Of a stretch of DNA of 64,000 nt, positions 4,293 to 38,874 are shown piece after piece. The position numbers and the translations under genes are program-made. A model generated the notes under the pieces. That model did no database searches. It was not told the DNA's origin and saw only the letters and a list, made by a program, of their open reading frames with translations. The stretch spans positions 62,001-126,000 of the forward strand of contig NZ_JAULRU010000617.1 in the NCBI RefSeq assembly GCF_030518155.1, read 5' to 3'. This stretch comes from Gilvimarinus gilvus (GTDB lineage: Bacteria > Pseudomonadota > Gammaproteobacteria > Pseudomonadales > Cellvibrionaceae). The stretch's first letter is position 1; the number at the start of each line of letters is the position of its first letter.

Positions 4293-4306
4293 ATTCTATA
4301 ATACAA
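4293..4306 (-). promoter_or_regulatory. Putative arabinose-regulon operator, site A (upstream of GH51)
   Basis: On the minus strand the bases read TTGTATTATAGAAT. They match the TTGTATTATAATA core found upstream of three other arabinose units (10314-10327, 30999-31011, 38861-38874), with two changes in the second half. The site lies 23 bases before the GH51 start codon, directly after the upstream terminator. The binding protein is unknown. Confidence 0.5.
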
Positions 4307-4332
4307 AAAAGCCCACTAGATTGCAGTGGGCG
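4304..4332 (-). terminator. Terminator of the GH43-galM-GH97-GH43 operon
   Basis: On the minus strand GCCCACTGCAATCTAGTGGGC forms an 8-bp stem followed by TTTTTTG. It starts 12 bases after the stop codon of the GH43-ricin gene. Its T-run merges with operator site A. Confidence 0.85.
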
Positions 4333-4342
4333 TTTACATTAC

Positions 4343-6121
4343 TTAATTCACTTCCCGAAGCTGGAATTTTTGGCAGTCATTATCAAACCATGGCGACTGT
4401 GACAAGTTCGCACCGTTGGCTAAAGCGCAACTATCAGCATTTAAAGATAGACCACTGTGGCGGTTGCGTAACTGCACGGAACCGTCACCCAGAGGTACAA
4501 CCGCCCACTCAGCTTCGGCGCCATCGCAACTTCCCAGCACCGCATTGGCACCCGGCACTATTGGATTGCCGGCCAGGGTCATACATTGATCCGCCAATTT
4601 CACGCTGTAGAAGGCTTCGCTGGTCGAGCTGAACTGCCATTTCTGTAAGTCACTGCCTTGCCAGCCATCCTGTGCAACGTTGCCGCCATCAGCAACGAGC
4701 GCTTTGCCACTTTGAACGCTCATAACAGCAACATCACCCGTCGGTGCTAGTCGCCATTGAGCATCATTACCGCCCAGTGTCGCGCCGGTATCGCGGTTAG
4801 TCAGGGTGAGCCAACCGTTAACATCGGTAGCAACCGTCCAGCGCTGCGTGTCGGTATTCACCCAGGGGGTAGCTTGCTCGTTCTGGTCGATAAAGGTACC
4901 ACTGTCGACGTGGGCCAAGCGATATGCCCCATCGGCGGTTGAGTCCAGCACCCAGTTGGCCTTGCTGCCAGCACAGGCGGCTAACGCAAGGTCGCCACCG
5001 TTCCCGACCAAACATTTACCGGCACGATTGACTAACTGTTGCTGAACCCCCTGCACAGACACCTTAATAGGGCCGTTTTCACCCGAGGGCATTTTAACCG
5101 GCTCACCTTCCGGTATTGGGTCGCCAAAGTTAGGCAGACCCTCGTCGGTCCAGGTGAACTGCTGTGCACGGACCGAGCGGGTTGAGCCGCAGCCATACTC
5201 TTCTTTCGAGTTGCCGTGATACACGATCCAGTCCTGCGTGCCATCGGGAGAGACAAAGAAACCATTATGGCCCGGGCCAAAGACGCCATTACCACGCTGA
5301 AAAACAGGCTCTTCATACTGCTTCCAGTGATCTGGGTTGAGCGGATCACTGCCAATTAACTCTTTCATCCCTAACTTGTAATCGGGGGTGTCACAATAAC
5401 TGGCAGAATAAATCAAAAAGGTGCGCCCCTTATGCTTGAGAATCTCAGCGCCCTCTGTAACCTCACGACCACTGATCTCCCAATCTAACTCAGGGCGAGT
5501 GATAACAACTTTAGGAGAGCCCGCTTTCAGCGTCCAGGGGGTTTCCATTTCGGTAATCAGATTTAACTGCTCTGGCCCGTGCCACTGCGAATAGAGCAAA
5601 TACAATTTGCCATCGTGCTCTAAGTAAGTACCGTCGATGTTCCATTCGTTGGGCATAAAGTGCCCCTTGTACTCGTAAGGGCCCATGGGGTCATCACCCG
5701 CACTTTCCAGTACCGACAGATGCTGATGATCTAAGGTGCCGTGGACACCGGCGGTATACATTAAATACCAGCGCCAGCCATTAGGGCCGTTTAAACGGTG
5801 AAATTCAAATGCCCAAAAATTCCAGCTGCGCGCCGGGTCCGTATCAGACCAGACATTAATCGGTGATGCTTCGGATAAACCTGCCAGAGTTGGCGATTTG
5901 CGCATGACCAGCTGCGACGTCCAGGTAGTCGTAGTGAGGTAGTAGTTACCATCCCAGTATTCCAACCAAGGGTCAGCGCCATTGGCAAACAGTGGATTGG
6001 CAAAATAGCCTTCGGGCAGGGTTTGCTCTTGCGCAGAGTTTGCCACATTGTCAGTTTGCGCACAGCCGGCAACTGCCGCCAGCGCACAAATACTGGTAAA
6101 TTTTTTCCACTTAATCATCAC
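4343..6121 (-). CDS. GH43 lipoprotein with C-terminal ricin-type lectin domain (probable arabinofuranosidase)
   Basis: The protein has 592 residues. A lipoprotein signal ends in AAVAG-C20, so it is probably anchored in the outer membrane. Residues about 36-345 form a GH43 five-bladed propeller. The catalytic base Asp is in NGADPW (D50), the pKa-modulating Asp in NIDGTYL (D163) and the acid Glu in TEGAEIL (E223). Residues about 355-592 form a beta-trefoil with three QxW-like repeats (TQRW, LQKW, CQKF), as in ricin B/CBM13 lectins, and probably hold the enzyme on galactose- or arabinose-rich glycans. It lies 18 bases after GH97 and is last in the operon. Arabinofuranosidase activity is inferred from context; xylosidase cannot be excluded. 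Confidence 0.85.
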   Translation of the reverse strand: MMIKWKKFTSICALAAVAGCAQTDNVANSAQEQTLPEGYFANPLFANGADPWLEYWDGNYYLTTTTWTSQLVMRKSPTLAGLSEASPINVWSDTDPARSWNFWAFEFHRLNGPNGWRWYLMYTAGVHGTLDHQHLSVLESAGDDPMGPYEYKGHFMPNEWNIDGTYLEHDGKLYLLYSQWHGPEQLNLITEMETPWTLKAGSPKVVITRPELDWEISGREVTEGAEILKHKGRTFLIYSASYCDTPDYKLGMKELIGSDPLNPDHWKQYEEPVFQRGNGVFGPGHNGFFVSPDGTQDWIVYHGNSKEEYGCGSTRSVRAQQFTWTDEGLPNFGDPIPEGEPVKMPSGENGPIKVSVQGVQQQLVNRAGKCLVGNGGDLALAACAGSKANWVLDSTADGAYRLAHVDSGTFIDQNEQATPWVNTDTQRWTVATDVNGWLTLTNRDTGATLGGNDAQWRLAPTGDVAVMSVQSGKALVADGGNVAQDGWQGSDLQKWQFSSTSEAFYSVKLADQCMTLAGNPIVPGANAVLGSCDGAEAEWAVVPLGDGSVQLRNRHSGLSLNADSCALANGANLSQSPWFDNDCQKFQLREVN

Positions 6122-6139
6122 AACCTCACACCTTCCACT

Positions 6140-8047
6140 TTAGAAATTAATTACGAACCCACCGCGTGGGCGCACTGTCAACTTGAAAGCCTTCGCTGCG
6201 CTAACATCACGACGACTAAAGGATCGGTCATCATCGCCATCTGTAATCATCTGTCCTTCACTGGCAATAAATGTCAAATCCATATTCAGCGTTACTTCAG
6301 CATCGGTACCGTTAATACCGGCCACAAACCAGTCACTGCCGCGACGACGGGCAACGACTGCATACTCACCAGGGCTGCCGGTCACTAATCGTGTTTCGTC
6401 CCAAAGCGTTGGGATATCACGCATATACTCTTTAACGAAATCCGGCACCTTTGCCATACCCGCTGGAGTTTCGGCAATATGCTGGATACCGCTGGTGAAC
6501 AAAACCGGCAGCGCCAACTCGAAGCCGTTGGAGGTCTTTCGCTCGATATTGGGGATTTCATCGAATGTGGTGGGAGTAAAATCCATAGGGTCAAACACAT
6601 TACGGGTAAAAGGCAGCATGGCCATATGGCTGGCGGCTTTATCCGCACTGGCCTGCATAAACGTAATCATTTCAAAGCCGTGAACAGATTCCATGGTCAT
6701 CATGTTGGGGTAAGTACGATGCAGCCCCCGTGGCAATGATGAACCGTGATAATTCAGCAACAGCTCATAATCTGCCGCATCGCTTAGCAGATCGTTGTAG
6801 TACTGCATAACCGACTGGCCATCACCCGGGAAGAAATCGATTTTTACCCCCTTCACGCCAACCTCGTGTAATCGGGCAAAGTGCTCGAGACGTTTAGTCC
6901 GATCCACCAGTTGACTTTTGGGAGTCATTTCCGTGGTATTCCATTCACCCGATGAGTTATACCAAACGAGCACGCCGACATTTTTTTCCTCAGCGTAATC
7001 CACGAGCTCCGCCAGTTTTTCCCAGCCGATATTCCGATCCCAGTTCGCATCAATCAGAACATAAGGCCAACCCATGTCGGCGGCGTAATCAATAAACTCC
7101 ATGGTGGTATCGAAGTTAACCGAGTCATCCTTTAATAGCGCCCAACTCCAGGCTGCCAACCCGGGTTTCGCCCAAGGCATATCACCTACGGCTGGTGCAG
7201 CCAAATCAGTGCCCAATGTTGACTCTGTCACAGTGGCCAAATCACCCACGGCAATAATTCTCCAGGGCGACGTAAGCGCTTCATCAGAGTTAGCCATCAG
7301 TTCACCACCGGTGATCACTTCGGGTGCCATAGGCTTACCAATTTGATACTCGCCCTCGGGTGAGTTCTGAGCCAGACGCGATGCATGGAAATCGCCCTGC
7401 ATTCCCGCCTCGCCAATTAATACCCAATCGTGGCCGGTATAAAATAGCGAAGGAAACACCCAGCCCGCTTCGGTAGGGCTGGCCGTACCGACCGGAATGT
7501 CCATCTGGTAGTGTTCTTCGTAAGACGGGTTAGTATTAGCAAAGCCGGTTTGAGCGACAGCAACGGGTTGTAACCAAGCTTTACTGTCCGGGGTAAAATC
7601 AAAACTGGTGTGCTCTTCAACAACATGCCGACTATTTTGACCGGCGTTTGGAATTTGGTACTGGAAAGACAAACCATTATCAGAAACCCGAAAGGCGAGT
7701 GTCAACACGTCACCTTGAGCATTCTCAACCTTAAACACTTGCTCGTTGGCCTGATACGTAATATCACGCTGTTTGCCATGAGACATGGTGTACGGCTCGG
7801 ACACATACTCAACGTTGCCAACGCTCTGTACACTAAGGCCGGTGTTAAACTCAGCGTCGCTTAATGTCAAACCAAGGGCCGAGGGCTCAAGTACAACATT
7901 GTCACGGTGGGTCAAAGAATACTCAACACCGCCATTGGTGCTTTCCTGCAAGCTTAGCTGCACCTCACCGTTGGGACTGGACAAGGTGTACGTTTGATCT
8001 GCTCCGCACCCAGCCAGAGCAAGTATTGCAAGCAATCGAAATTTCAT
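6140..8047 (-). CDS. GH97 lipoprotein, probable retaining alpha-galactosidase or beta-L-arabinopyranosidase
   Basis: The 635-residue protein starts with MKFRLLAILALAGCG, a short lipoprotein signal with Cys14, and AAAGGAGAGTCT precedes the ATG. The order is N-terminal beta-supersandwich, catalytic TIM barrel and C-terminal beta domain, as usual for GH97. The motif GVKGVKIDFFPGDGQ carries an Asp after KI. In the retaining GH97 branch this is the nucleophile; the inverting SusB branch lacks it. MTMESVHG provides a candidate acid/base Glu. Known retaining members act on alpha-galactosides or beta-L-arabinopyranosides, which suits arabinogalactan side chains. The following aldose epimerase gene fits release of galactose or arabinose. 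Confidence 0.85.
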   Translation of the reverse strand: MKFRLLAILALAGCGADQTYTLSSPNGEVQLSLQESTNGGVEYSLTHRDNVVLEPSALGLTLSDAEFNTGLSVQSVGNVEYVSEPYTMSHGKQRDITYQANEQVFKVENAQGDVLTLAFRVSDNGLSFQYQIPNAGQNSRHVVEEHTSFDFTPDSKAWLQPVAVAQTGFANTNPSYEEHYQMDIPVGTASPTEAGWVFPSLFYTGHDWVLIGEAGMQGDFHASRLAQNSPEGEYQIGKPMAPEVITGGELMANSDEALTSPWRIIAVGDLATVTESTLGTDLAAPAVGDMPWAKPGLAAWSWALLKDDSVNFDTTMEFIDYAADMGWPYVLIDANWDRNIGWEKLAELVDYAEEKNVGVLVWYNSSGEWNTTEMTPKSQLVDRTKRLEHFARLHEVGVKGVKIDFFPGDGQSVMQYYNDLLSDAADYELLLNYHGSSLPRGLHRTYPNMMTMESVHGFEMITFMQASADKAASHMAMLPFTRNVFDPMDFTPTTFDEIPNIERKTSNGFELALPVLFTSGIQHIAETPAGMAKVPDFVKEYMRDIPTLWDETRLVTGSPGEYAVVARRRGSDWFVAGINGTDAEVTLNMDLTFIASEGQMITDGDDDRSFSRRDVSAAKAFKLTVRPRGGFVINF

Positions 8048-8152
8048 AGACTCTCCTTTGTTATTATCGAGAGCGTTCGCTTAACAATCGAGCAGTAAGT
8101 CACTGCACTCAATACGGCTGTTGTGGCGATCGCTTGAGCTTCAGCGGTTGGA

Positions 8153-9234: not shown

Positions 9235-10257
9235 TTAGTCGCCAAGCTCTTGGCCGAACACGGGAAAACCCTGCTCATCCCAATGTAACACCCGAGCCCG
9301 TGCATCGCGATTGGGGTCGGTAAGCGGTGTGCCCTGCAACTCTTTGTAATCGCGTGAGTGATAAATCAATAGGTCTGTTTCACCATCTTCCGCAACCGTA
9401 AAGCTGTTGTGGCCGGGACCGAAACGTTTAACCGCTTCGTTGGTATAGAACACGGGCTCGGGCAGTTTATGCCAAGATTCTTGTTTCATTAGATCGGCAT
9501 CGGCATCTGCCCACAACATCCCCATAGCGTAGTTGTGATCGGTCGCACTGGCTGAATAGGTCATAAAAATACGACCGTTCTTTTTAAACACAGCCGCACC
9601 TTCATTGACCTTGTAGGTAATGATTTCCCAGTCTAGCGTTGGCTCTGTCAGCATAATGACAGGCTCTTTGATTTTAACCGGGCTCTCCAGCTCAGCCATA
9701 TACAGCGCAGAGTTGTATTTCTTTGCAGGGTCTTTTTGCGCCCACACCAAATAGCGTTTGCCATCATGGGCAAAACTTGTTGCATCCAGGGAAAAGTCGT
9801 CCCAGGGGGTATGCATACGAACGGGTTTGCTCCACGTGCCGGCCAACGGATTAGCCGCTGTTGAGGTGATGGCATGCATGCGAATCATCCATGGCTCATC
9901 CACCGGTGCACCGGCAAAATAGATCACCCACTGATCATCAAAATAATGCAACTCTGGCGCCCAGATATTAATACCGATGCTGCTCTGTTTAGTTGGCTGC
10001 CAGATGGTGACTTCTTCGGCGTCAGATAGGCCATTTATGGTTCTGGCCCGGCGCAACACCAGTCGATTGAATTCAGGAACAGTGCCAATAAAGTAGTAAT
10101 AGCCGTCCGTGTGACGGTGAATCCAGGGATCTGCGCGCAACTCGACAATTGGATTATCGTAGTCGACGGCGCCTGATTCGCCAGCCGACGCGGTAGTCAC
10201 AATGCAAAAGCTCGCCGCGATTACAGCGAGTAATGTGAGTATTCTGTTCACAGTCAT
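9235..10257 (-). CDS. Exported GH43 arabinan-active arabinofuranosidase
   Basis: The start at 10257 is chosen because AAGGGG lies upstream and a signal peptide ending ...TTASA follows (about residue 25). The mature enzyme is a single GH43 propeller with the base Asp in LRADPW (D43), modulator Asp in SLDATSF (D158) and acid Glu in VNEGAAV (E219). It resembles exo-acting 1,5-alpha-L-arabinofuranosidases. It is the first gene of a four-gene operon ending at the terminator near 4304. A close paralogue without a signal peptide is encoded at 24639-25586, which suggests an extracytoplasmic and a cytoplasmic version of one activity. Confidence 0.88.
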   Translation of the reverse strand: MTVNRILTLLAVIAASFCIVTTASAGESGAVDYDNPIVELRADPWIHRHTDGYYYFIGTVPEFNRLVLRRARTINGLSDAEEVTIWQPTKQSSIGINIWAPELHYFDDQWVIYFAGAPVDEPWMIRMHAITSTAANPLAGTWSKPVRMHTPWDDFSLDATSFAHDGKRYLVWAQKDPAKKYNSALYMAELESPVKIKEPVIMLTEPTLDWEIITYKVNEGAAVFKKNGRIFMTYSASATDHNYAMGMLWADADADLMKQESWHKLPEPVFYTNEAVKRFGPGHNSFTVAEDGETDLLIYHSRDYKELQGTPLTDPNRDARARVLHWDEQGFPVFGQELGD

Positions 10258-10313: not shown

Positions 10314-10327
10314 TTATTATAATACAA
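10314..10327 (-). promoter_or_regulatory. Putative arabinose-regulon operator, site B (between divergent GH43 genes)
   Basis: The minus strand reads TTGTATTATAATAA, containing the perfect palindrome TATTATAATA (10315-10324). It lies 57 bases before the exported GH43 start and 88 bases before the endo-arabinanase start, so it could control both directions. Confidence 0.55.
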
Positions 10328-24638: not shown

Positions 24639-25586
24639 CTAGTCGTCGAATGCAGCATCACCAAACACAGGCATACCCTGTTCATCCCACTTCAGTTTTT
24701 TCACGAAGGTGTGACGGTTGGGGTCCCACAAAGGATCGCCCTCAATTTCGGTGTAGGTGCGGGCATGGTATACCAACAGATCGGTTTCACCGTCTTCAGC
24801 TTTGGTGAAACTATTATGACCGGGGCCGAATATTTTGTTCTCCGGGCTGGAGCGCAAGACCGGCTGTTGCGACTTACTCCAGCTGGTAGGGTCGAGCAAA
24901 TCGGCATCCTGATCAGCCCACAAAAGTCCCATTGCGTAGTTTTCATCCGTCGCGCTGGCAGAATAGGTCATAAAGATTTTGTTGCCATGCTTAACGATTG
25001 ACGGGCCTTCGTTAACCCAGAACCCAATAATTTCCCAATCGTATTCCGGAATAGACAAACGAATAGGCTCGCCTTCAATTTCAGTGGGGGTTTTCATCGG
25101 TGCGATGTAAAGGTTCGAGTTACCGCGAATACCCACTTCCTTCTGCGCCCACACATAGTAGAGCACGCCGTTATGGCTAAAGGTTGTGGCATCGAGGCAG
25201 AAGGTATCAATACCCGTGTCGATTTTCCCTTCGAACGTCCACTCTCCGGCTACCGGGTTATCGTCTTTGCAGGAAATCGCGTACATACGATGCTGGAACA
25301 GATCGTATTTGATTTCGCGTGAAGGGGCCGCTGCGAAATAGACATACCAAGCGCCCTGATTAAAGTGTATTTCCGGCGCCCAAATCAGGTCACTGTAGGG
25401 GCCTGTTTCGGGTTTGTGCCAAACCATAACGGTCTCGGCGGTTGCCAGTTCGGAAATCGTTTTGGCCCGGCGCAACTCAATACCGTCGTAAGCCGGAACA
25501 CTGGCCGTAAAATAGTAATAGCCATCGGTGTGCTTGTAGATATGGGGGTCAGCACGCTGCTCAATCAAAGGCTTTAATACAGTCAC
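24639..25586 (-). CDS. Cytoplasmic GH43 arabinofuranosidase
   Basis: The GTG at 25586 is chosen because TGGAGA lies six bases upstream; that ribosome site falls within the longer TTG-initiated frame. No signal peptide is present. GH43 residues are Asp13 in QRADPH, Asp132 in CLDATTF and Glu193 in VNEGPSIV. Most of the chain parallels the exported GH43 at 9235-10257, including HTDGYYYF, MTYSASATD-NYAMG and FGPGHNSF. It lies 21 bases after the GPH symporter, which suggests that it hydrolyses arabino-oligosaccharides imported by that carrier. Confidence 0.87.
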   Translation of the reverse strand: MTVLKPLIEQRADPHIYKHTDGYYYFTASVPAYDGIELRRAKTISELATAETVMVWHKPETGPYSDLIWAPEIHFNQGAWYVYFAAAPSREIKYDLFQHRMYAISCKDDNPVAGEWTFEGKIDTGIDTFCLDATTFSHNGVLYYVWAQKEVGIRGNSNLYIAPMKTPTEIEGEPIRLSIPEYDWEIIGFWVNEGPSIVKHGNKIFMTYSASATDENYAMGLLWADQDADLLDPTSWSKSQQPVLRSSPENKIFGPGHNSFTKAEDGETDLLVYHARTYTEIEGDPLWDPNRHTFVKKLKWDEQGMPVFGDAAFDD

Positions 25587-25607
25587 AATTTTTCTCCAAA
25601 ACAAAAA

Positions 25608-26981
25608 TTAGGTCATATCTTCAACAGTATGGGCGGGCGACTCCGACTCGATCTCACCGCGCGCTACCATGTCGTTGTAAAAACGGTCGGTAATCTTGTA
25701 CTTAAACATCACAAAACCGAGTAACGCGTGAAACAACCCGGGAATAACGGTCAGCATCAGTGCGATACCGGTTAGGGCAAATTCGGTTTGGGTTTCACCG
25801 GCCTGATAACCAAATAGCGTCAGCAATAGCCCGGTAATAAAACCAGCCAAACCGGCACCCGCTTTTTGGCAGAAAGAGATGCCACCGAATGCCAAGCCGG
25901 ATACACGCTTACCGGTTTTTGCCTGACCGTAATCCACAGCCTCGGCAATGGCTGACCAAAAGACCGGCGCGTGCAAATCCACCACAAACGACAGTACAAC
26001 GTAGACGACAAACGCCATCACTATGTCTCCAGGAGAGACAGCAAAGAACATAAAGGCACTGATAACCCCTACTGCAATTTGCGACCAGCGAAACAGCTGA
26101 ACCTTACAATAGCGTTTTGTAATCCAGGTTGAGGCGACCATGGAAACAATAGAGGCGGCAATACCCGCACTGGTAAACATGGCCGCGGTCGACTCGGTGC
26201 CGCCCAGATAGTAAATGGCATAGTAAAACGCGACACCACCACGCATTGCATAGCCGAGAGTACCCAGCATGCAACAAGCCGCTAACACCAACCATTGGTC
26301 ATTTTTGATCAATAGAGCCAGTTGTTCCCGTAACGGCTTTTTGTCAACCACATGCTCTACCCGCTCACGGGTTGTTGCAAAGCACATCAGCAATAAGCCA
26401 ACACCAACCAAAGACATAAAGCCCATCGCCAACTGATAGCCTTTAGCGGCATCGCCCGCTCCCCACATCTCAGCCAGTTTCGGTATTGAGGCAACAATCA
26501 CCACATTGGCGATCTTGGCGAAGAACATGCGATAGCCGTTCGCCGACAGCCGCTCTTTAGGGTCGCTGGTAAGTACGCCAATATAAGAAATATAAGGAAT
26601 GGCTACACCCGTAAACATCAAGGTGGCGAACAGATAGGTCACATACGCCCAAACTAGTTTGGCGTTATAGTCAAAATCGGGGGTGGTAAACAATAAGAAA
26701 ACAGCAAATCCGTACGGAATCGCTAAATACAAAAAGTAAGGGCGGAATCGACCATAGCGAGTTTTAACTTTATCGGTCAACAACCCCATCAAAGGGTCAC
26801 TCAATGCATCGACAAACCGGGCGGCTAAAAACAAGGTGCCGACATGGACAGGCTTAAGGCCAAAAATATCAGTATAAAAATACTGCATAAAGTAGAACAT
26901 GGCCGCAATCATGACGTTTACCGACATGTCACCGGCACCGAAACCTACTTTCTCGACGACTGATAATTTTTCAGTTTTCAT
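25608..26981 (-). CDS. GPH-family (MelB-like) sugar:cation symporter
   Basis: The 457-residue protein has twelve predicted membrane helices. GPH-family signatures include an N-terminal EKVGFGAGDMSVN, the helix 2-3 loop RFVDALSDPLMGLLTDK-KTRYGRFRPY, and VAIPYISYIGVL. GPH carriers import pentosides, hexuronides or galactosides with Na+ or H+. Its place between araA and a cytoplasmic GH43 suggests L-arabinose or arabino-oligosaccharide uptake. A hairpin after araA (27048-27075) may reduce read-through into this gene. The ribosome site before the ATG is weak. Confidence 0.85.
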   Translation of the reverse strand: MKTEKLSVVEKVGFGAGDMSVNVMIAAMFYFMQYFYTDIFGLKPVHVGTLFLAARFVDALSDPLMGLLTDKVKTRYGRFRPYFLYLAIPYGFAVFLLFTTPDFDYNAKLVWAYVTYLFATLMFTGVAIPYISYIGVLTSDPKERLSANGYRMFFAKIANVVIVASIPKLAEMWGAGDAAKGYQLAMGFMSLVGVGLLLMCFATTRERVEHVVDKKPLREQLALLIKNDQWLVLAACCMLGTLGYAMRGGVAFYYAIYYLGGTESTAAMFTSAGIAASIVSMVASTWITKRYCKVQLFRWSQIAVGVISAFMFFAVSPGDIVMAFVVYVVLSFVVDLHAPVFWSAIAEAVDYGQAKTGKRVSGLAFGGISFCQKAGAGLAGFITGLLLTLFGYQAGETQTEFALTGIALMLTVIPGLFHALLGFVMFKYKITDRFYNDMVARGEIESESPAHTVEDMT

Positions 26982-27082: not shown

Positions 27083-28585
27083 TTAAATGCCTTGGTTTAA
27101 GTGGTAGAACACGGCGTTGTGACGCAGCTCCTGTTTAAACGCGCGAATGTTTGTGTCTTCGTCAATTACTACCATCTCTACACCCGCCATCTCGGCAAAG
27201 TCAGCCACCTGATCAGTGGTAATGCCTTGCGTGTATACACTGTGGTGAGCACCACCGGCATGTATCCAGGCGGCACCTGCCACTTCCAGGCTAGGCTTAG
27301 GCTCCCACAGAGCCTTAGCAACGGGCAGGTGTGGCAACTCGGCCGGCGGTTCAACAGTCTCCACTTCATTCACAATAATCCGGAAGCGTGTTCCCATATC
27401 GATAGTGGAAATATTGAGCGCCGGGCCGCTGGCTCCGGTAAACAACAAGCGCGCAATATCTTTCTTAATACCAATGGTGTGTGGCTCTACCACAACTTTT
27501 GGCTTGCCGGAGGCGATGCTCGGACAAATCTCCAGCATGTGTGCGCCCAGCACTTGATCGGTAGCGGCGAAATTGTAAGTGTAGTCTTCCATAAAGGAGG
27601 TACCACCCGTGCGACCTTTACTCATCACCTTAACGATGCGATTCATCGCTGAGGTTTTCCAGTCGCCCTCACCACCGTAACCGTAGCCTTTGGCCATCAG
27701 TCGCTGAGTCGCAAGGCCTGGTAACCCAGACAAACCTGTGAGATTTTCAAAGCAGTTGGTAAACGCCATACAGCCGCGTTTTTCCATAAAGCGCTCCATA
27801 CCTAATTCCAGGCGCGCTTCGTTCTGTAACATTTCTAACTGGTGAGCATCGTCAAACACGGCTGCATCGATTTCGTAATCGGCTTTGTAGAGTTCAAGCT
27901 GAGCGGCAATGTCGGCATCTGACACGGCGTCACACTCTTTGGCCAAGTCACCCAAACCATAGGCGTGCACTTCATAACCAAATTGAATTTGAGCCGACAC
28001 CTTATCGCCTTCGGTCACCGCCACTTGACGCATGTTGTCACCAAAGCGGGCAACACGAAGGTTCTGAGCTTCGTTCCAACCCATGGCGGCACGAATCCAA
28101 TTATCAATCTGGACCTGAACGGTTTCGCGCTCCCAGTGGCCAACAACGACCTTACGCTCCTGACGCAAACGCGTACCGATATAACCGAACTCGCGGTCAC
28201 CGTGTGCGCTTTGATTCAGGTTCATGTAATGCATATTGATTTCGCCCCAGGGCAGCTGTGCACCAAACTGCGTGTGCAGGTGCATGTAGGGCTTATTCAG
28301 TGCGGATAAACCTGAGATCCACATTTTTGCTGGCGAGAATGTATGCATCCAAAGAATCAGACCGACACAGTTTTTGTCACTATTGGCGGCCTGACAAATA
28401 TCCAGGATTTCCTCTGGGGTGGTTACAACACCCTTCGCTACCACTTCAGCGGCAACATTTTCACTGGCGGTAAGACCACTCGCAATTTTGGCGCTGTTAT
28501 CGGCTACTTCTTTGAGCAGAGCCGGGCCGTACAAATGCTGCGAGCCGGTTACAAACCAAACTTTTTTATCGCCATAGACTTTCAT
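27083..28585 (-). CDS. araA: L-arabinose isomerase
   Basis: The enzyme converts L-arabinose to L-ribulose in the cytoplasm using Mn. The start at 28585 is chosen because AGAGGTTAGTT precedes the ATG and it gives exactly 500 residues, the usual AraA length. Family blocks include [14 protein letters not shown] at the N-terminus, [25 protein letters not shown] (metal Glu), FMEDYTYNF with [10 protein letters not shown] (metal Glu and His), and [15 protein letters not shown] (metal His). It follows araD by 10 bases. Confidence 0.97.
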
Positions 28586-28595: not shown

Positions 28596-29288
28596 TTAGC
28601 TCTGCCCGTAATAGGCATTTTTTCCGTGTTTGCGTAAATAATGTTTATCGACAATACCCTGCTTGAGCGACTGCACGTCTTGCTTTAAAGTGCGTGTCAA
28701 ATAGGCCATTTTCGCTATTTCTTCCAGAATAACCGCATGGTATACCGACTGGGCGCCATCTTTACCCCAGGTAAAAGGCGCGTGACCTGCGATGATGGCC
28801 ATCGGAGTTTCCATCGGATTCTTACCTTTAAAACAATCGGTAATCTGAACTCCGGTCTCTTCCTCGTAATCCCGCTCAATCTGCTCGTCGGTCATAACCG
28901 CCGTACAGGGGATAGGCCCGTACGCATAATCGGCATGAGTTGTACCTAAACAAGGAATGGGTTGCTGTGCTTGGGCCCAAGCCGTCGCATAGGTTGAGTG
29001 GGTGTGTGTTACACCACCAATATTGTCAAAGTGACGGTACAAGTGGGTGTGGGTTTTGGTATCCGAAGACGGGCGCATTTGGCCCTCAACCACATTGTTC
29101 TCAAGGTCGACGACAACAATATCATCGGCCTTCATATCTTCGTAGGCCACGCCGCTGGGCTTAATCGCTACAACACCGCGCTCGCGATCAACCTGCGATA
29201 CATTACCCCAGGTATACAACACCAGATTGCGGTGGTGTAACTGCATATTAGCTTCATAAACTTCGCGTTTTAATTCGGTATAGCTCAC
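28596..29288 (-). CDS. araD: L-ribulose-5-phosphate 4-epimerase
   Basis: The 230-residue protein epimerises L-ribulose 5-phosphate to D-xylulose 5-phosphate, the entry to the pentose phosphate pathway. It belongs to the class II aldolase fold. Zn-binding His residues are in [15 protein letters not shown] and the later [11 protein letters not shown]. The GTG start has GGAGGAG upstream and overlaps the araB stop by the four bases GTGA, indicating translational coupling. Confidence 0.96.
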
Positions 29289-30952
29289 GCTACTCCTCCA
29301 TTCGCGTACTGACCCAGCGCTTTGTAGTTTTCATACAGCGCATCGTAGGTACGAGCCGCCTCGGCTTTGGGTTGATAAGTTTTGCAAACACTGGAACCCA
29401 TCGCTTTCTGTGCGCTGGCGACACTGTCGTGTGCTCCGCCCACCGTAGCGGCAAAAATAGCGGCCCCCAAAGCGCAGCTCTGGTCACTTTCCAGCACGTC
29501 AATCGGACAATTCCAAACATCGGCACACGTTTGCATCACGAAATCTGACTTTTTCGAAATACCGCCAATGGCAACCACGCTATCAATGGCGACGCCTTCC
29601 TCGCGGAAACGTTCAATAATGGCGCGAGCACCAAAAGCCGTGGCTTCAACCAACGCGCGGAATACTGCAGCTGCATCGCTACCCATTTTCAGTCCGGAGA
29701 TTGCACCGGCTACTGTTTGGTCGGCATCGGGGGTGCGGCGCCCGTTAACCCAATCAAGCGCGGTAACACCGGTTTGGCCGGGGGCAATAGCGGTAGCCGC
29801 GTTGGACAGCTCAATCAATGTCTTATCTTCGAGCTCTGCAATCAGCTGTGACTTAGCAGCGGCGTCCAGCGCATTGGACTGCTCAATAATGGCTTTGGCA
29901 GGGCCATTAACAAAGTTCTTGAACCAGGCGTAAAGATCACCGAAAGCGGACTGCCCAGCTTCCAGACCAATCATCCCAGGAATAACCGAACCGTCGACCT
30001 GACCGCAAATACCGCGCACACAGGTATCGCCGATAACCTCAGCCGATGCGATGGTAATGTCACAGGTAGAGGTGCCCATCACTTTGGTGAGTACGCCGGG
30101 TTGCACGTTTGCCGCTACCGCGCCCATATGACAATCAAAGGCAGAAAAGCCAATGGGGATGCCCGCAGGTAAGCCAAGCTTCGCTGCCCACTCAGAGGTC
30201 AGTGGCCCAACGGCCTGATCGGCGGTAAAAGTTTCCGCAGGCAAGCGATCGACAAACCCATCGAGAATGGGGTCAACACCGGCAAAGAAGTCATTGGGCG
30301 GATAACCACCCCAGCTTGCATGCCACATTACTTTGTGGCCAGTGGCGCAACGGCCCATACGCAGCTCACTCGGATGCGTAGTGCCGGTCAGCACCGCCGT
30401 CATCCAGTCGCAGTGCTCTACCCACATATGTGCCGCCTCTTTAACAGAGCCGTCTGCGCGCATCACATGTAGAGCTTTCGACCAATACCACTCAGAGGAG
30501 TAGATCCCACCTTCATACTTTAAGTAGTTGGGCTCGGAGCGACTGGCTGCCTCCGTAAATTCAGCCGCCTCTTTTACCGCCGTGTGATCTTTCCACAACA
30601 CGAACATTGCGTTGGGATTCTCAGCAAATTCCGGCTTGAGCGCCAGAGCCACACCCTCGGCGTCAACCGCGACCGGTGTCGAGCCGGTGGTATCAAAACT
30701 AACCCCCACAACTGATTCCGCAGCCCCTTCTGGAGCCTCGCCCCACAGGTTAGCAAGCACTTGCTCCAAACTTTCAAGGTAATCCAGCGGGTGCTGACGA
30801 AACTGATCCTGAGCGGGCTCGCAGTACAAGCCTTTGGCCCAGCGAGGGTAATTCACCACACTCGAGGCAACTTCGTCCCCGGTGGCGGTATTTACAAGCA
30901 GTGCTCTAACTGAATCGGACCCGTAATCGAGGCCCAGCGCATAAGAAACCAT
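29285..30952 (-). CDS. araB: L-ribulokinase
   Basis: This FGGY-family kinase of 555 residues phosphorylates L-ribulose. The start at 30952 (MVSYALGLDYGSDSVRALLV) places the phosphate-binding DYGSDSVR loop in the expected position. Other AraB features are FDTTGSTPV, VLWKDHTA, the catalytic-region FSAFDCHMGAVAANV, VMGTSTCDI and the C-terminal IGGISKKSDFVMQ. It is the first gene of the operon araB-araD-araA-symporter-GH43-GH127. Operator site C lies 46 bases upstream. The ribosome site is weak (TAGGGTTTGTCTT). Confidence 0.95.
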   Translation of the reverse strand: MVSYALGLDYGSDSVRALLVNTATGDEVASSVVNYPRWAKGLYCEPAQDQFRQHPLDYLESLEQVLANLWGEAPEGAAESVVGVSFDTTGSTPVAVDAEGVALALKPEFAENPNAMFVLWKDHTAVKEAAEFTEAASRSEPNYLKYEGGIYSSEWYWSKALHVMRADGSVKEAAHMWVEHCDWMTAVLTGTTHPSELRMGRCATGHKVMWHASWGGYPPNDFFAGVDPILDGFVDRLPAETFTADQAVGPLTSEWAAKLGLPAGIPIGFSAFDCHMGAVAANVQPGVLTKVMGTSTCDITIASAEVIGDTCVRGICGQVDGSVIPGMIGLEAGQSAFGDLYAWFKNFVNGPAKAIIEQSNALDAAAKSQLIAELEDKTLIELSNAATAIAPGQTGVTALDWVNGRRTPDADQTVAGAISGLKMGSDAAAVFRALVEATAFGARAIIERFREEGVAIDSVVAIGGISKKSDFVMQTCADVWNCPIDVLESDQSCALGAAIFAATVGGAHDSVASAQKAMGSSVCKTYQPKAEAARTYDALYENYKALGQYANGGVA

Positions 30953-30998
30953 AAGACAAACCCTATCTACCCCCAGCAAAACGGAGGAGTCTTTATTT

Positions 30999-31012
30999 TG
31001 TATTATAATATT
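30999..31012 (+). promoter_or_regulatory. Putative arabinose-regulon operator, site C (upstream of araB)
   Basis: TTGTATTATAATAT contains the perfect palindrome TATTATAATA (31001-31010). It lies 46 bases upstream of the araB start in the divergent gap with the CBS-domain gene. Confidence 0.55.
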
Positions 31013-31155
31013 ATCCGAGCGGGACGGGCCTTTGTCAAATATTTCTTACTTTGGATTAACCGGAAATTTATAACCCCACTCAAGCTAGTGCTGAACACAC
31101 TACCCCTTGGCACGCAGCTCTCCCATGCTTACACTCACACTAAAAAGGGCAGGTA

Positions 31156-31620
31156 ATGAAGCAGGGCATCGAGCAAATAATGACTACACACGTAGACTGT
31201 GCCTACGAGGGCTGGTCTTTGCAACGCCTACAGAATTTACTGAACCAAAAGGAGCTGACACGAGTCCCGGTAATAGCGTCAGATCATCAATTGGTCGGCA
31301 GTGTTGGTAGCGCCGATATTTACCGGCTGATGAACCAAGAAGAGACTTACCGTGCACAACTTGTAAACGATAACTTTAGGCGCACAACCGGTTCCGACAT
31401 CGACAACCTAGATGAGCTCACTCAATGGAGCAGGCGTGCACAGGTATACTGTACCGTACACCAGATCATGCAACCGGCGGACAACCAAATTGATATTAGC
31501 GCCAGCCAATCTGAACTGAAAGCCGCAATGTTACATGCTTCCAATCAGACTCTGTGGGTCACACGACTGGGGTTGCTGGTCGGCAAAATAGAGGCGGTTG
31601 ACCTGCTTACCGATTGTTAG
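31156..31620 (+). CDS. CBS-domain protein
   Basis: The 154-residue cytoplasmic protein has two CBS repeats with an intervening linker. The first (about 5-60) contains QIMTTHVDCAYEGWSL and TRVPVIASDHQLVGSVGSADIY; the second (about 100-154) contains HQIMQPADNQIDISAS and a degenerate WVTRLGLLVGKIEAVDLL end. CBS pairs usually bind adenine nucleotides and regulate a partner. Here no catalytic domain is attached. It is divergent from araB and convergent with the HAD gene, and no partner is evident. Confidence 0.75.
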   Translation: MKQGIEQIMTTHVDCAYEGWSLQRLQNLLNQKELTRVPVIASDHQLVGSVGSADIYRLMNQEETYRAQLVNDNFRRTTGSDIDNLDELTQWSRRAQVYCTVHQIMQPADNQIDISASQSELKAAMLHASNQTLWVTRLGLLVGKIEAVDLLTDC

Positions 31621-34240: not shown

Positions 34241-34264
34241 CGGGTATTGAGACTTCAATACCCG
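34241..34264 (-). terminator. Hairpin after the sugar ABC transporter operon
   Basis: CGGGTATTGA and TCAATACCCG form a perfect 10-bp stem with loop GACT, 67 bases after the YjfF-like stop. No T-run follows, so termination is only probable. Confidence 0.5.
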
Positions 34265-34330
34265 GTATAAACACGAAGCTAGAAACCTTAAGCGGTTAAA
34301 ACTAACCGCCCAAGGCCACAATATCATTGA

Positions 34331-35287
34331 CTAGGCTTTGGTACCACGGCGCACCAGATAGCGCTGCAAAGCGATAAAAACAAACAGCAGTAGGCCAATC
34401 ACAATCTTGGTCCACCAGCTGGATAAGGTGCCATCGAAAGAGATGTAGGTTTGCACAACCCCCATAATCAGCACACCAAATAAGGTGCCTACAACGTAGC
34501 CATACCCACCCGTTAACAAGGTACCGCCTATCACCACGGCCGCAATCGCATCGAGCTCAACGCCCACCGCCGCCAATGAATAACCAGAGAAGGTGTAGAA
34601 GCTAAACACAATTCCGGACAGGGCCGCAAAAAAAGAACTTAAGGCGTAAACACTGATGGTGGTGCGTGCAATAGGCACCCCCATTAAGGCAGCAGACTGA
34701 GCGTCACCGCCAATGCCGTACACACGCCCACCAAAGCGGGTGAAGTTAGCCAGCCAAATAGCCAGCCCCAACACCACCAAGGCGATAATGGTCGAGCTAC
34801 CCAACCAGGCGCCACCCGGCAACTCAAAGCCAAACATGGCGACGTTATCATAGAACATGTGAGTAATCGGTACCGACTCTTCACTGACCACCGAGCTTAA
34901 ACCGCGGGCGAAAAACATGCCCGCTAAAGTGACAATAAACGGTTGCAGCTGATAAAAGTGAATAATCGCGCCCATGGCGGCACCAAACAGCGTCCCCAGC
35001 ACCAACACAAAGGCAAACGCCGGAATGGGATGCCAACCATAATCACGCAACAGAACGCTAATAATGACCCCACTGAGAGCAATGGTGGAGCCTACGGACA
35101 AATCAATACCGCCCGACAGAATGACAAACGTCATACCAATTGCCGCGATGATCAAAAAGGCATTGTCGGTAAACAGGTTCATAAACACCCGCAGGGTGCC
35201 AAAGTTTTCAAACTGCACGGAGCCGACCAAAAACAGCAACACAAACAGCGAAGAGGTTACGTATAAAGGTAGAAACTTCTTATTCAT
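34331..35287 (-). CDS. yjfF: Sugar ABC transporter permease, YjfF type
   Basis: The 318-residue protein has about ten membrane helices and the BPD_transp_2 pattern: IAAIGMTFVILSGGIDLSVGS, then GIGGDAQSAALMGVPI, the coupling region, and AIAAVVIGGTLLTGGYG. It resembles E. coli YjfF, one of two permeases of the galactofuranose importer. Its ATG overlaps the YtfT stop by four bases. With YtfQ, R and T-like proteins it forms a complete high-affinity importer, here most likely for L-arabinofuranose or another furanose. Confidence 0.88.
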   Translation of the reverse strand: MNKKFLPLYVTSSLFVLLFLVGSVQFENFGTLRVFMNLFTDNAFLIIAAIGMTFVILSGGIDLSVGSTIALSGVIISVLLRDYGWHPIPAFAFVLVLGTLFGAAMGAIIHFYQLQPFIVTLAGMFFARGLSSVVSEESVPITHMFYDNVAMFGFELPGGAWLGSSTIIALVVLGLAIWLANFTRFGGRVYGIGGDAQSAALMGVPIARTTISVYALSSFFAALSGIVFSFYTFSGYSLAAVGVELDAIAAVVIGGTLLTGGYGYVVGTLFGVLIMGVVQTYISFDGTLSSWWTKIVIGLLLFVFIALQRYLVRRGTKA

Positions 35288-36294
35288 GATTGCGCACCAC
35301 CTGCTTTCTTAAATCGCGCAATCTGACGGTGAAACTCCGGTGACTGCAACAGCAAAATAACAATAATCGCGGCAGCCTTAATCAGCAGATTAAACTTAGG
35401 CGGAACACCGCTGAGAATAATGGTAATGGTCAGCGCCTGAATAATAAGCGCGCCGATGATTGACAGAAACACTGAGAAGCGCCCACCCATTAGCGAGGCG
35501 CCGCCAATGACTACCGCGAGAATAGCGTCGAGCTCCAGCCAAAGGCCGGCGTTGTTGGCATCACTACCGCCAATATCAGCCGCCGCAATCATACCCGCAA
35601 CGGCCGCACACAAGCCCGACACACAGTACACCATCAGTTTAATGAGCTTATCGTTAATGCCTATGTAGTGACTGGCACTGGCATTGGCTCCGACACCCTC
35701 CACAAAAAGCCCGAGCGCCGTACGGCGCATTAACAACTGCACCAGTACAAACGTAATGATCACTAAGATAATTGGGAAGGGTAAGCCAAAGAGATAGCCA
35801 ACACCTAAATACTCGAACGCCTCGTGATGGAAAGTGACAATCTGCCCGGAGTTAATCAGCTGCGCGATACCACGGCCGGCCACCATTAGAATAAGTGTCG
35901 CCACAATCGGCTGAATACCAAAGTACCCCACCAAAAAACCATTGACGAAGCCTGCGGCAACACCGGCCAGCAAACCACCGCCAATAACGATGGCAATATT
36001 GTCGACACCGCCGACAATCAGCCCGGCACTTACCGCGCCGGCAATCGCCATAACCGACCCTACGGAAAGGTCAACGCCGCCGGTGGCAATCACCAGTGTC
36101 ATACCAATAGCGAGCAGTGCCACAGGCGCCGCACGGTTCATGACATCAATCAAGCTGCCATAAAAGCGACCGTCTTTAATTTCTATACTGAAAAACTCCG
36201 GAGAGATCAGCACATTGGCCAACAGAAGGACAAACAGCCCAATAATTGGCCAGAGGCTGCGCCGAACAGCGGGAGATAAATCTTTATAACGCAT
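35284..36294 (-). CDS. ytfT: Sugar ABC transporter permease, YtfT type
   Basis: The 336-residue permease carries LAIGMTLVIATGGVDLSVGSV, GFLVGYFGIQPIVATL, GVGANASASHYIGIND and AILAVVIGGASLMGGRFS, the two repeated signatures of ribose/galactofuranose-type permeases. It lies 11 bases after the ATPase gene and is coupled to YjfF. It forms the heteromeric channel of the importer. Confidence 0.9.
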   Translation of the reverse strand: MRYKDLSPAVRRSLWPIIGLFVLLLANVLISPEFFSIEIKDGRFYGSLIDVMNRAAPVALLAIGMTLVIATGGVDLSVGSVMAIAGAVSAGLIVGGVDNIAIVIGGGLLAGVAAGFVNGFLVGYFGIQPIVATLILMVAGRGIAQLINSGQIVTFHHEAFEYLGVGYLFGLPFPIILVIITFVLVQLLMRRTALGLFVEGVGANASASHYIGINDKLIKLMVYCVSGLCAAVAGMIAAADIGGSDANNAGLWLELDAILAVVIGGASLMGGRFSVFLSIIGALIIQALTITIILSGVPPKFNLLIKAAAIIVILLLQSPEFHRQIARFKKAGGAQS

Positions 36295-36305
36295 AATCTT
36301 TACAC

Positions 36306-37808
36306 CTAAGACTGGCCGGCAATGGCCTGCATAATGGTTTGCTGTGAGATGTCTGAACCACTCAACTCAGCCACCTTGCGACGATCGCGCATGACCACCA
36401 CCTTATCGGCAAATTCGACCAACTCTTCTAATTCTGAGGACGCTACCAGCAGCCCCAAACCGTCATCGCACAACTTGCGAATCAGTTGAATAATTTCAGC
36501 GTGCGCGCCCACGTCAATACCGCGGGTGGGTTCATCCAGCAGCATTAACTTGGGTTCGGCGGCCAACCAACGAGCGAGAATCACCTTTTGCTGGTTACCA
36601 CCACTCAATTGGTTAATCGGCTTTTCGATATCACTGGTGGCAATTTTGAGCACTTTGACATAATGCTCGGCCAGCTCACGCTGCTTTTTCATGGGGATAT
36701 AGCGCCACCAACCCCGCTTGTTCTGCAGCGCCATAATCATATTTTCGCGAATAGACATGGGGCCCAAAATGCCGTCTTTTTTACGGTCTTCAGGACATAA
36801 ACCAAGGCCGGCAACCACCGCCTGACGGGTGTTGCTAAAGCGAATGGACTGATTGTTTAGCTTGGCGTCGCCCTGACTTAGCTCGTCAACGCCGAACACC
36901 AACTTGCACAGCTCAGTGCGGCCAGAACCAAGCAGACCGGCTAAACCTACCACCTGGCCTGCACACACGCTGATATCGAGAGGCTCCAGTACATCACTGG
37001 AGCCCTGGTTAAGTTCAAATAGCGTTTCGCGGGTTTGGGCCTCAGCCTGCCCCACTTTTTCGTGCACGGCTTTTTCCAATTCCTTGCCGAGCATGTGACT
37101 GACCAAATCCTGCTGCGACAAGGTGGCCGCTTCATACTCCCCCACCAAGGTGCCATTGCGCAAAATGGTTATGCGGTCACAAACGGCGTACACCTGATCA
37201 AGGAAGTGGGTGACAAACACAATACCGATACCGCGATCACGCAAATCCCGCATGATATTGAACAAGGAGGCAACTTCTTCCGCATCCAGACTTGCGGTAG
37301 GCTCATCGAGAATAAGCACCTTGGCCGACATGGAAACACCACGGGCGATAGCAATAAGCTGCTGTACAGCCACAGAGTAACTGTTGAGCGGTGCGGTTAC
37401 ATCGATATCCAGATCGTAGCCGAGCAATAATTCACGCGCCTCACGATTCATCCGGCGCCAGTCAATAATGCCAAAGCGCTTGGGCTCGCGCTCCAGAAAA
37501 ACATTCTGGGCCACGGTTAGGTTGGGCAGCAGATTCACTTCCTGATAAACGGTACTAATCCCCAGATCCTGAGCGTCGCCAGTGTTGGCGGGATGAATCT
37601 CGGTGCCGTCCAAGGCGATAATGCCACCATTGCGACGGTAGACACCCGTCATCACCTTAATAAGGGTGGATTTACCGGCACCGTTCTCGCCCAACAGAGC
37701 GTGAATTTCGCCTTTTCTCAGGGTGAAGTCCACCCCGTTCAGCGCTTTCACACCGGGAAAGGTTTTCACCACCCCGCGCAGCGCCAGAACTGTATCATCT
37801 GTGCTCAT
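36306..37808 (-). CDS. ytfR: Sugar ABC transporter ATPase, YtfR type (two nucleotide-binding domains)
   Basis: The 500-residue protein has two ABC domains. The first has Walker A GENGAGKST, signature-like YSVAVQQLIAIARG and Walker B LILDEPTASLDAEE. The second has a degenerate Walker A GLLGSGRTEL but an intact signature LSGGNQQKV and LMLLDEPTRGIDVG. This asymmetry is normal for RbsA/MglA/YtfR ATPases. It is second in the operon, 53 bases after the binding protein. Confidence 0.92.
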   Translation of the reverse strand: MSTDDTVLALRGVVKTFPGVKALNGVDFTLRKGEIHALLGENGAGKSTLIKVMTGVYRRNGGIIALDGTEIHPANTGDAQDLGISTVYQEVNLLPNLTVAQNVFLEREPKRFGIIDWRRMNREARELLLGYDLDIDVTAPLNSYSVAVQQLIAIARGVSMSAKVLILDEPTASLDAEEVASLFNIMRDLRDRGIGIVFVTHFLDQVYAVCDRITILRNGTLVGEYEAATLSQQDLVSHMLGKELEKAVHEKVGQAEAQTRETLFELNQGSSDVLEPLDISVCAGQVVGLAGLLGSGRTELCKLVFGVDELSQGDAKLNNQSIRFSNTRQAVVAGLGLCPEDRKKDGILGPMSIRENMIMALQNKRGWWRYIPMKKQRELAEHYVKVLKIATSDIEKPINQLSGGNQQKVILARWLAAEPKLMLLDEPTRGIDVGAHAEIIQLIRKLCDDGLGLLVASSELEELVEFADKVVVMRDRRKVAELSGSDISQQTIMQAIAGQS

Positions 37809-37861
37809 AGTATTTTCCAGGAACCGGCGCCAAGCGCCGGGTTACAACATTGCAAACCGCT

Positions 37862-38806
37862 TTACTGGCTCTTGCGCAGCTCGTATTCGTCTTGATAATT
37901 TTCTTGGGTAAAAATTCGCCCGTCCATTACCATCCACTTTTCAAAGTCGCGCTTGCCATCAAGGTAGGCTTCAATAACGTCAAAGGCAGGGCCACCCAGG
38001 TGTGGGCTCATTTCAACCGAGGCGTTGACATCACCGGCCTTTAAGGCACTGAAGATATCATCAACGGCATCCACTGACACTACCAGAATGTCTTCACCCG
38101 GCTTCAAACCCGCTTCGCGAATGGCTTGAATGGCTCCCAATGCCATCTCGTCATTGTGCGTCCACAGTGCACACAATTCCTTACCGCCACCTTCGGCCTT
38201 CAGAATACTCTCCATGACCTCTTTACCCTTAGCCCGGGTAAATTCAGCGGTTTGTGAGCGGACAATTTTGGCACCCTCGTACTTGCCAATTACCTCGTTA
38301 AAACCTTCCATACGGCCAATCGCAGCGCTGGAGCCAACCGTTCCTTGCAGCTCGACAATGTCACACTGCCCGTCGGTTGCATCCATCAACCAATTAGCAG
38401 CTTTACGACCTTCATCGACAAAGTTTGGCGCGATACGGGTCACATAAAGTTGGTCGTTATTAACGGCAACATTGCGGTCAACAATCACCACAGGAATACG
38501 GGCGCGACGCGCCTCCATCAGAACCGGACGCCAGCCCGTCTCCACCACCGGGGCAACGACAATGGCGTCCACGCCTTGGGCGATAAAACTGCGGATCGCT
38601 TTAATCTGGTTTTCCTGCTTTTGCTGAGCATCGGAAAACTTCAGATCAATTCCACGCTTGTCGGCTTCCGCTTTGACGGATTCGGAAAAAGTCGTGCGCC
38701 AGCCACTTTCAGAGCCGACCTGAGAAAACCCCACGGTTAAAGCACTTGCCACTTGGGATGCACCTAACAGGGATGCGAGCGCCAAACCCATAATTGATTT
38801 GTTCAT
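37862..38806 (-). CDS. ytfQ: Periplasmic sugar-binding protein, YtfQ type
   Basis: The start at 38806 follows AGAGGCAACT and gives a signal peptide ending VASA. The 314-residue protein is very like E. coli YtfQ: VGFSQVGSESGWR, DAQQKQENQIKAIRSFIAQGVDA, APVVETGWRPVL, CDIVELQGTVGSSAAI, FTRAKGKEVMESI, and GGPAFDVIEAY. YtfQ binds galactofuranose and some related pentoses. The arabinose operator upstream (38861-38874) and nearby arabinan genes suggest L-arabinofuranose as a substrate; this is inference. Confidence 0.9.
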   Translation of the reverse strand: MNKSIMGLALASLLGASQVASALTVGFSQVGSESGWRTTFSESVKAEADKRGIDLKFSDAQQKQENQIKAIRSFIAQGVDAIVVAPVVETGWRPVLMEARRARIPVVIVDRNVAVNNDQLYVTRIAPNFVDEGRKAANWLMDATDGQCDIVELQGTVGSSAAIGRMEGFNEVIGKYEGAKIVRSQTAEFTRAKGKEVMESILKAEGGGKELCALWTHNDEMALGAIQAIREAGLKPGEDILVVSVDAVDDIFSALKAGDVNASVEMSPHLGGPAFDVIEAYLDGKRDFEKWMVMDGRIFTQENYQDEYELRKSQ

Positions 38807-38860
38807 AGTTGCCTCTTCTAAGCTATTGTCTTTATTGAACGAAGTTCGCACTTGGGCAAA

Positions 38861-38874
38861 TTGTATTATAATAC
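38861..38874 (+). promoter_or_regulatory. Putative arabinose-regulon operator, site D (upstream of the ABC transporter)
   Basis: TTGTATTATAATAC contains the 12-base perfect palindrome GTATTATAATAC (38863-38874). It lies 55 bases upstream of the ytfQ-like start. The gap up to the tRNA fragment at 39043 shows nothing else clear. Confidence 0.58.

What the first reader, a model, noticed from the sequence alone, without database searches (positions are those of the whole stretch)
4293..38874. One AT-rich palindrome marks four arabinose/arabinan transcription units
TTGTATTATA recurs exactly at four places: 4293-4306 (before GH51), 10314-10327 (between the divergent GH43 genes), 30999-31012 (before araB) and 38861-38874 (before the ytfQ-like gene). 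Three copies contain the perfect palindrome TATTATAATA, and site D extends to GTATTATAATAC. All sit 20-60 bases upstream of a start codon of an arabinose-related unit. It does not resemble the enterobacterial AraC site or the Bacillus AraR site as I know them. No regulator gene of the expected type lies in these blocks, so an unlinked repressor or activator for L-arabinose is predicted.
Basis: partly seen in the sequence, partly recalled or inferred. Interest (0 to 1): 0.72.

Follow-up and report, generated by a model that had tools for sequence, protein, structure and literature searches.

The report
Arabinose-gene repressor sites and their repressor
The short repeated sequence looks like the docking site of a DNA-binding repressor that probably switches a marine bacterium's arabinose and arabinan genes on and off together, and the best candidate gene for that repressor lies just outside the window.

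Summary
The repeat is real: TTGTATTATA occurs four times in the window, 0.07 expected. Related araB promoters show an 11-bp odd palindrome, TTGTA-W-TACAA, centred 2.5 bp from TATTATAATA; it fits the FadR-subfamily GntR consensus. In the host genome (Gilvimarinus-like, 4.78 Mb) WTTRTAWTACAAW has four exact places, all within 50.5 kb: sites B, C, D and a perfect copy before a TonB receptor gene 11.7 kb left of the window. About 5 kb further left lies an FCD-domain GntR regulator, the best candidate ("AraR"). Its orthologues occur in 13 of 13 family genomes with a close araB and in 0 of the 48 others, in one of them divergent from araB. Of 44 named araB genomes searched, 31 have the orthologue and all 31 have the araB site. 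Four unlinked GH43 genes also carry matches. Site A (GH51) is weak. Site C abuts the araB -10 box, so repression by promoter occlusion is inferred. The effector is unproven. Shewanella AraR-II (GntR) is a separate clade with a similar site. Nothing was tested at the bench.

The parts
4296..4306 (-). Site A, weak operator-like sequence TTGTATTATAG before GH51
   Evidence: matrix score 12.2, not above shuffles; in relatives' GH51 upstream regions best scores are 4.1, 9.5, 12.1 and 17.2
10317..10327 (-). Site B, operator TTGTATTATAA between divergent GH43a and GH43b
   Evidence: score 20.9; same place in G004 and G036
30998..31008 (+). Site C, operator TTGTATTATAA in the araB promoter (TTATAATACAA read with the gene)
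   Evidence: score 19.5; araB promoters of relatives
38861..38871 (+). Site D, operator TTGTATTATAA before ytfQ
   Evidence: score 20.9; same score before ytfQ in L026, L027 and L183 (L027 and L183 are the same species)
31033..31038 (-). Putative -35 box TTGACA of araB
   Evidence: read; present in many araB promoters of relatives
31010..31015 (-). Putative -10 box GATAAT of araB, 17 bp after the -35 box and 1 bp before site C
   Evidence: read
2738..4270 (-). GH51 alpha-L-arabinofuranosidase-like gene
   Evidence: NF051901 E 2.3e-63, below the model's cut-off
9235..10257 (-). GH43a
   Evidence: PF04616
10416..11492 (+). GH43b, AbnA-like endo-arabinanase
   Evidence: NF053747 E 4.3e-82, below the model's cut-off
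29285..30952 (-). araB, ribulokinase
   Evidence: NF003154 above cut-off
28596..29288 (-). araD
   Evidence: NF006047 above cut-off
27083..28585 (-). araA (ATG at 28585)
   Evidence: NF002795 above cut-off; start read
25608..26981 (-). GPH-family symporter (araT-like)
   Evidence: TIGR00792 above cut-off
24639..25604 (-). GH43, same strand after the symporter
   Evidence: PF04616
22199..24556 (-). GH127 beta-L-arabinofuranosidase, last gene of the same-strand row
   Evidence: PF07944
37862..38806 (-). ytfQ-like sugar-binding protein (GafA/AraU type)
   Evidence: no family search was run on it; named from position before the YtfR/YtfT/YjfF genes and from orthologues
34331..36294 (-). ytfT and yjfF-like permeases
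   Evidence: NF041862 and NF008630; NF008630 above its cut-off, NF041862 below

Best explanation
The repeat is the operator of a FadR-subfamily (FCD-domain) GntR repressor, here called AraR, encoded at C79:44475-45197 on the minus strand, 17 kb left of the window. A dimer is expected to bind the odd palindrome TTGTAWTACAA, often with one half relaxed to TTATAA, at the araBDA-symporter-GH43-GH127 row, the ytfQRT-yjfF transporter, the divergent GH43 pair, a TonB receptor and an SSS symporter next to araR, and some unlinked GH43 genes. At araB the site abuts the -10 box, so bound AraR should block RNA polymerase. L-arabinose or a metabolite of it should release it. Shown by sequence: sites, conservation, co-occurrence, protein family. 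Inferred: that this protein binds them, repression, and the ligand.
For: Exact motif in the host only on C79, 4 places in 50.5 kb; ATTRTAATACAAW 4 against 0 control in the host, 36 against 4 in the 13 genomes with AraR, 11 against 39 in the 48 without. Of 15 such loci from AraR genomes inspected, 14 are before araB, a TonB receptor, GH43, GH127 or araR and 1 is inside an ORF; of 11 from genomes without AraR, none is beside a gene similar to the 23 reference proteins. AraR orthologues (68% or more) in 13 of 13 family genomes with a close araB, none of the other 48 above 57% among loci compared; on the araB contig in 10 of 13, 0.3-72 kb away. Divergent neighbour of araB in G051 (L166) and in L037. 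Named genomes: 31 of 31 with AraR have an araB site of 17.2 or more; of 13 without, 2 do. Two family genomes with a distant araB (52%) lack AraR and the site. Site before araR itself in 10 of the 38 sources scanned. Spacing GT-N3-AC fits the FadR consensus TKGT/ACMA (PMC4494728, section read). Unlinked GH43: 4 of 11 score 15 or more against 0 of 114 other ORFs. The AraR clade is separate with 100/98 support.
Against: No binding, expression or mutant data. Genomes are related, so the Fisher values overstate the evidence. At one mismatch the motif is not enriched over its control. Strong matches also lie inside genes (C184:303330, 18.6; C792:114677) or before unrelated genes (a sulfatase-domain gene at C79:28684, 15.1). 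Site A is weak. In the host, gaps of 436 and 189 bp part the TonB receptor, the esterase and araR, and the nearest site before araR scores only 9.7. The paralogue GntR103 has a near-identical recognition helix. Several of the araB promoters scored were also in the matrix training set.
Confidence: 0.85

Rival explanations
1. The sites are bound by the paralogue GntR103 (C101:122247-122987) or by both paralogues.
For: GntR103 is 47% identical to AraR with an almost identical helix-turn-helix.
Against: It is absent as a close orthologue from, or present in, genomes without regard to araB: close relatives are found in many genomes lacking araB. Its neighbours look like a galactose/galactonate pathway (sugar dehydrogenase, lactonase, dehydratase, galT/galK, named by eye). 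Of 7 of its loci, one has an intergenic matrix match; of 14 upstream regions one has the FadR consensus, from the same genome. It is never the neighbour of araB in the loci seen.
Confidence: 0.06
2. The repeat is only the AT-rich -10 promoter element (TATAAT-like) of strong promoters, with no common regulator.
Against: The conserved part extends to the ACAA half-site, which is not a promoter element; perfect palindromes occur at C79:50347 and L037:9454; presence follows the AraR gene across genomes.
Confidence: 0.03
3. AraR senses L-arabinonate or another sugar acid from an oxidative pathway, not L-arabinose.
For: FadR-subfamily ligands are mostly carboxylic acids (PMC4494728, passage); the D/H/H metal site and Arg of DgoR are invariant; in some relatives the site lies before an arabonate-dehydratase-like gene; the host has a dehydratase/FAA-hydrolase/aldehyde dehydrogenase row on C594 with a 14.7 match near it.
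Against: A close arabonate dehydratase (78% or more) is in only 5 of 23 AraR genomes searched, and the Gilvimarinus relatives G036, G004/G062, G061 and G081 have nothing above 37%.
Confidence: 0.25
4. The four-fold repeat is chance.
For: Site A is within the chance range.
Confidence: 0.02

Closest known systems
AraR-II regulon of Shewanella (GntR family; predicted, PMC2996990, passages read; RegPrecise AraR in ANA-3, PMC10191376, passages read)
   Same: GntR/FCD protein, ara gene clusters, araB promoter site ATTGTAGTACAAT in L060 and L088
   Different: 34-38% identity and a separate clade; the published logo was not seen; Gilvimarinus, Cellvibrio, Alteromonas-like and Pseudoalteromonas genomes carry the other clade
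E. coli DgoR, D-galactonate repressor (PMC7674646 and PMC12288454, passages read)
   Same: FadR subfamily; best solved-structure match by sequence, 7c7e (that 7c7e is DgoR is my inference); D146/H150/H195/R102 conserved as D151/H155/H199/R107; operators overlap the promoter
   Different: different pathway; DgoR operator letters were not seen in a call (recalled as similar)
Bacillus subtilis AraR
   Same: GntR-type DNA-binding domain, arabinose and arabinan genes, TTGTA...TACAA half-sites (recalled)
   Different: C-terminal LacI-like domain (PMC4494728, passage); the present protein has FCD instead
Bacteroides BtAraR (PMC4666351, passages read)
   Same: arabinose-responsive repressor of unlinked operons
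   Different: Nudix/NrtR family, unrelated protein

Membership tests
FadR (FCD) subfamily of GntR regulators | N-terminal GntR winged helix and C-terminal FCD domain | tested here: met
   PF00392 and PF07729 above cut-off; fold matches FadR-type proteins, model pLDDT 84, pTM 0.66
FadR (FCD) subfamily of GntR regulators | TKGT/ACMA operator with 3 nt between GT and AC | tested here: met
   TTGTATTACAA at C79:50347 and ATTGTCATACAAT in Cellvibrio; sites B-D have one relaxed half (TTAT)
Shewanella AraR-II orthologous group | orthology to ANA-3 AraR | tested here: not met
   36% identity, different supported clade
Bacillus AraR subfamily | LacI-type C-terminal domain | tested here: not met
   FCD domain found instead
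Arabinose repressor (function) | binds ara operators and is released by L-arabinose | not testable with these tools
   only co-occurrence, position and sites
DgoR orthologous group | galactonate operon neighbours | tested here: not met
   neighbours in the host are TonB receptor, esterase and SSS symporter; araB in G051 and L037; NCBIfam gives no model above cut-off

The most novel reading that the evidence does not exclude
A repressor clade derived from the sugar-acid-sensing FadR/FCD proteins has been turned into the L-arabinose (or L-arabinofuranose/L-ribulose) sensor of Cellvibrionales and several Alteromonadales lineages. It keeps the DgoR-type metal pocket while most of these genomes lack a close arabonate pathway, and it evolved apart from the Shewanella AraR-II, which ended on nearly the same operator.
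Probability: 0.4. Interest if true: 0.55.

Novelty: new member of a known kind. Interest (0 to 1): 0.45.

Why it matters
It gives a testable regulator, operator and gene list for arabinan use in a group of marine plant- and alga-polysaccharide degraders (Gilvimarinus, Cellvibrio, Marinimicrobium, Catenovulum, Pseudoalteromonas and others), and assigns a role to an FCD regulator that no NCBIfam model names above cut-off. If the ligand is a neutral sugar, it would extend what FCD domains are known to sense.

Tried and rejected
Rejected: the even palindrome TATTATAATA as operator axis (comparison). GntR103 as the regulator. The one further exact TGTATTATAATA in the genome, C792:114677, lies inside an ORF. 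L-arabinonate as the universal effector is disfavoured but not excluded: the host itself has a dehydratase/FAA-hydrolase/aldehyde-dehydrogenase row on C594. One-mismatch genome scans were not informative (controls as high). The claim that receptor, esterase and araR form one operon was dropped after measuring gaps of 436 and 189 bp. Literature: the ten searches showed no paper on this FCD-GntR clade as an arabinose regulator; listings only, apart from the papers read in passages. RegPrecise could not be opened; its propagated Alteromonadales regulons (PMC3840689, passage) may already contain it.

Rows left out: one search printed 50 of 69 loci; one search was given 45 of 69 loci and searched 44 (L057 not held); one search scored 49 of 69. 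One search showed 26 of the 28 new loci; two of these (L272, L281), from contig ends, were not centred on the match. The 61 family genomes and the 44 named genomes overlap (G004 is G062 by identical coordinates; G025 and G102 appear to be one).

Full report
Observation. TTGTATTATA occurs four times in the window where shuffles give 0.07, and TATTATAATA three times. Coordinates are right except site C, one base too high. Sites B, C and D lie before GH43a/GH43b, araB and ytfQ; site A lies before GH51 and directly behind what looks by eye like the terminator hairpin of the upstream GH43 gene.

Host. The window is C79:62001-126000 of a 4.78 Mb genome in 852 contigs. Its closest named araB relatives are Gilvimarinus (81-87%), and a genome placed in the same genus (G004) has the same coordinates as the one holding the G. 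agarilyticus locus.

The true site. In araB promoters of relatives the aligned element is TTATAATACAA (Gilvimarinus, Marinimicrobium), TTGTCATACAA (Cellvibrio), TTATCATACAA (many Alteromonadales) and TTGTAGTACAA (Shewanella L060, L088). These share an 11-bp odd palindrome whose full form, TTGTAWTACAA, occurs at C79:50347 and, with conserved placing, before the same TonB receptor gene in G036 and G004. GT-N3-AC with TKGT/ACMA boxes is the FadR-subfamily consensus (PMC4494728, section 10 read).

Matrix test. A matrix of 27 site rows from other genomes (both strands of some palindromic sites counted; host left out) ranks B, D and C first in the window (20.9, 20.9, 19.5); the register-shifted overlap of site C is next (14.0), then A at 12.2. 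At 19 or more there are 3 real sites against 0.03 in shuffles; at 12 or more 5 against 1.89.

Genome test. WTTRTAWTACAAW has four exact places in the host, all on C79 between 50347 and 100872; the chance of four random places falling in such a span is about 5e-6. With one mismatch allowed the real pattern (55 rows) does not exceed its reversed control (63 rows), so weak matches mean little by themselves. Across 61 family genomes ATTRTAATACAAW gives 36 sites against 4 control in the 13 genomes with AraR, and 11 against 39 in the other 48. Of 15 AraR-genome loci inspected, 14 lie before araB, a TonB receptor, GH43, GH127 or araR, and one is inside an ORF; of 11 loci from other genomes none lies beside a gene similar to 23 reference proteins.

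The regulator. The host has 11 GntR-domain matches; two proteins, L097 and L103, are the best matches to the Shewanella ANA-3 AraR-II (36% and 38%). L097 (C79:44475-45197) is FCD-type. Its orthologues (68-93%) occur in all 13 family genomes with a close araB; among loci of the other 48 genomes the best is 57%. In 10 of the 13 it is on the araB contig, 0.3-72 kb away; in G051 and in the named genome of L037 it is the divergent neighbour of araB. Two genomes with a 52% araB lack it, and their araB upstream regions score 4.1 and -2.0. In 44 named araB genomes, 31 have an orthologue (53% or more) and all 31 have an araB site of 17.2 or more; of 13 without, two Shewanella have 19.3, three Shewanella 16.2, four 7.8-12.8 and four Rhodoferax/Comamonadaceae 3.1 or less. 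About seven of these promoters were also in the training set. The AraR clade (41 rows) has support 100/98; GntR103 and Shewanella AraR-II fall outside. Fisher values ignore relatedness.

Regulon. In relatives sites also lie before araR itself (10 of 38 sources scanned), TonB receptors, GH43 genes and an arabonate-dehydratase-like gene. In the host an SSS symporter has 18.2 and araR itself only 9.7. Of 16 host GH43 matches, six score 15 or more: the pair sharing site B and four on other contigs (17.0, 15.9, 15.1, 15.1). Off C79 this is 4 of 11 against 0 of 114 other ORFs, p 3e-5, in stretches that had been picked round motif-like hits. Site B is kept in G004 and G036 with the same flanking genes.

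Mechanism. In the araB promoter TTGACA, 17 bp, GATAAT is followed after 1 bp by the operator, so a bound dimer would cover the start region: repression by occlusion is inferred. The FCD pocket keeps DgoR's metal ligands and Arg, which suits a sugar acid; but a close arabonate dehydratase is in only 5 of 23 AraR genomes and missing from the Gilvimarinus relatives, which favours L-arabinose or a ribulose-pathway metabolite. The host has its own aldonate-type gene row on C594 with a marginal 14.7 match, so the acid remains possible. By eye, AraR has Ala where FadR has the Arg-35 that reads G (table), in keeping with TTGT rather than TGGT.

Known or new. Rodionov et al. (PMC2996990, passages) predicted a GntR AraR-II regulon in Shewanella and noted similar ara clusters in Saccharophagus and Cellvibrio. 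The present protein is a different clade with a similar operator. I file it as a new member of a known kind. It may already be in RegPrecise, which I could not open.

Noticed in passing
window 31156-31620: A CBS-domain protein gene divergent from araB; in G. agarilyticus its counterpart has a separate AraR-type site (19.5) 92 bp upstream (L027:9782).
   Followed up: partly
G000:C101:122247-122987 (L199:10247-10987): FCD-GntR paralogue of AraR whose neighbours in several genomes look like a galactose/galactonate pathway; a likely galactonate-type regulator.
   Followed up: partly
L185:5971-6612 (G019): A third, divergent FCD-GntR beside an arabonate-dehydratase-like gene, with a 20.9 AraR-type site between them.
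   Followed up: no
G000:C594:3695-9396 (L020): Row of FAA-hydrolase, GntP permease, IlvD/EDD dehydratase and aldehyde dehydrogenase genes, probably an aldonate pathway, with a 14.7 match before the dehydrogenase.
   Followed up: partly
window 45977-52679: Same-strand row TonB receptor, phytase-domain protein, PhoX phosphatase: a possible phytate-use unit.
   Followed up: no
window 4310-4336: Hairpin plus T-run between the ricin-domain GH43 and GH51, by eye a terminator; its T-run supplies part of site A.
   Followed up: no
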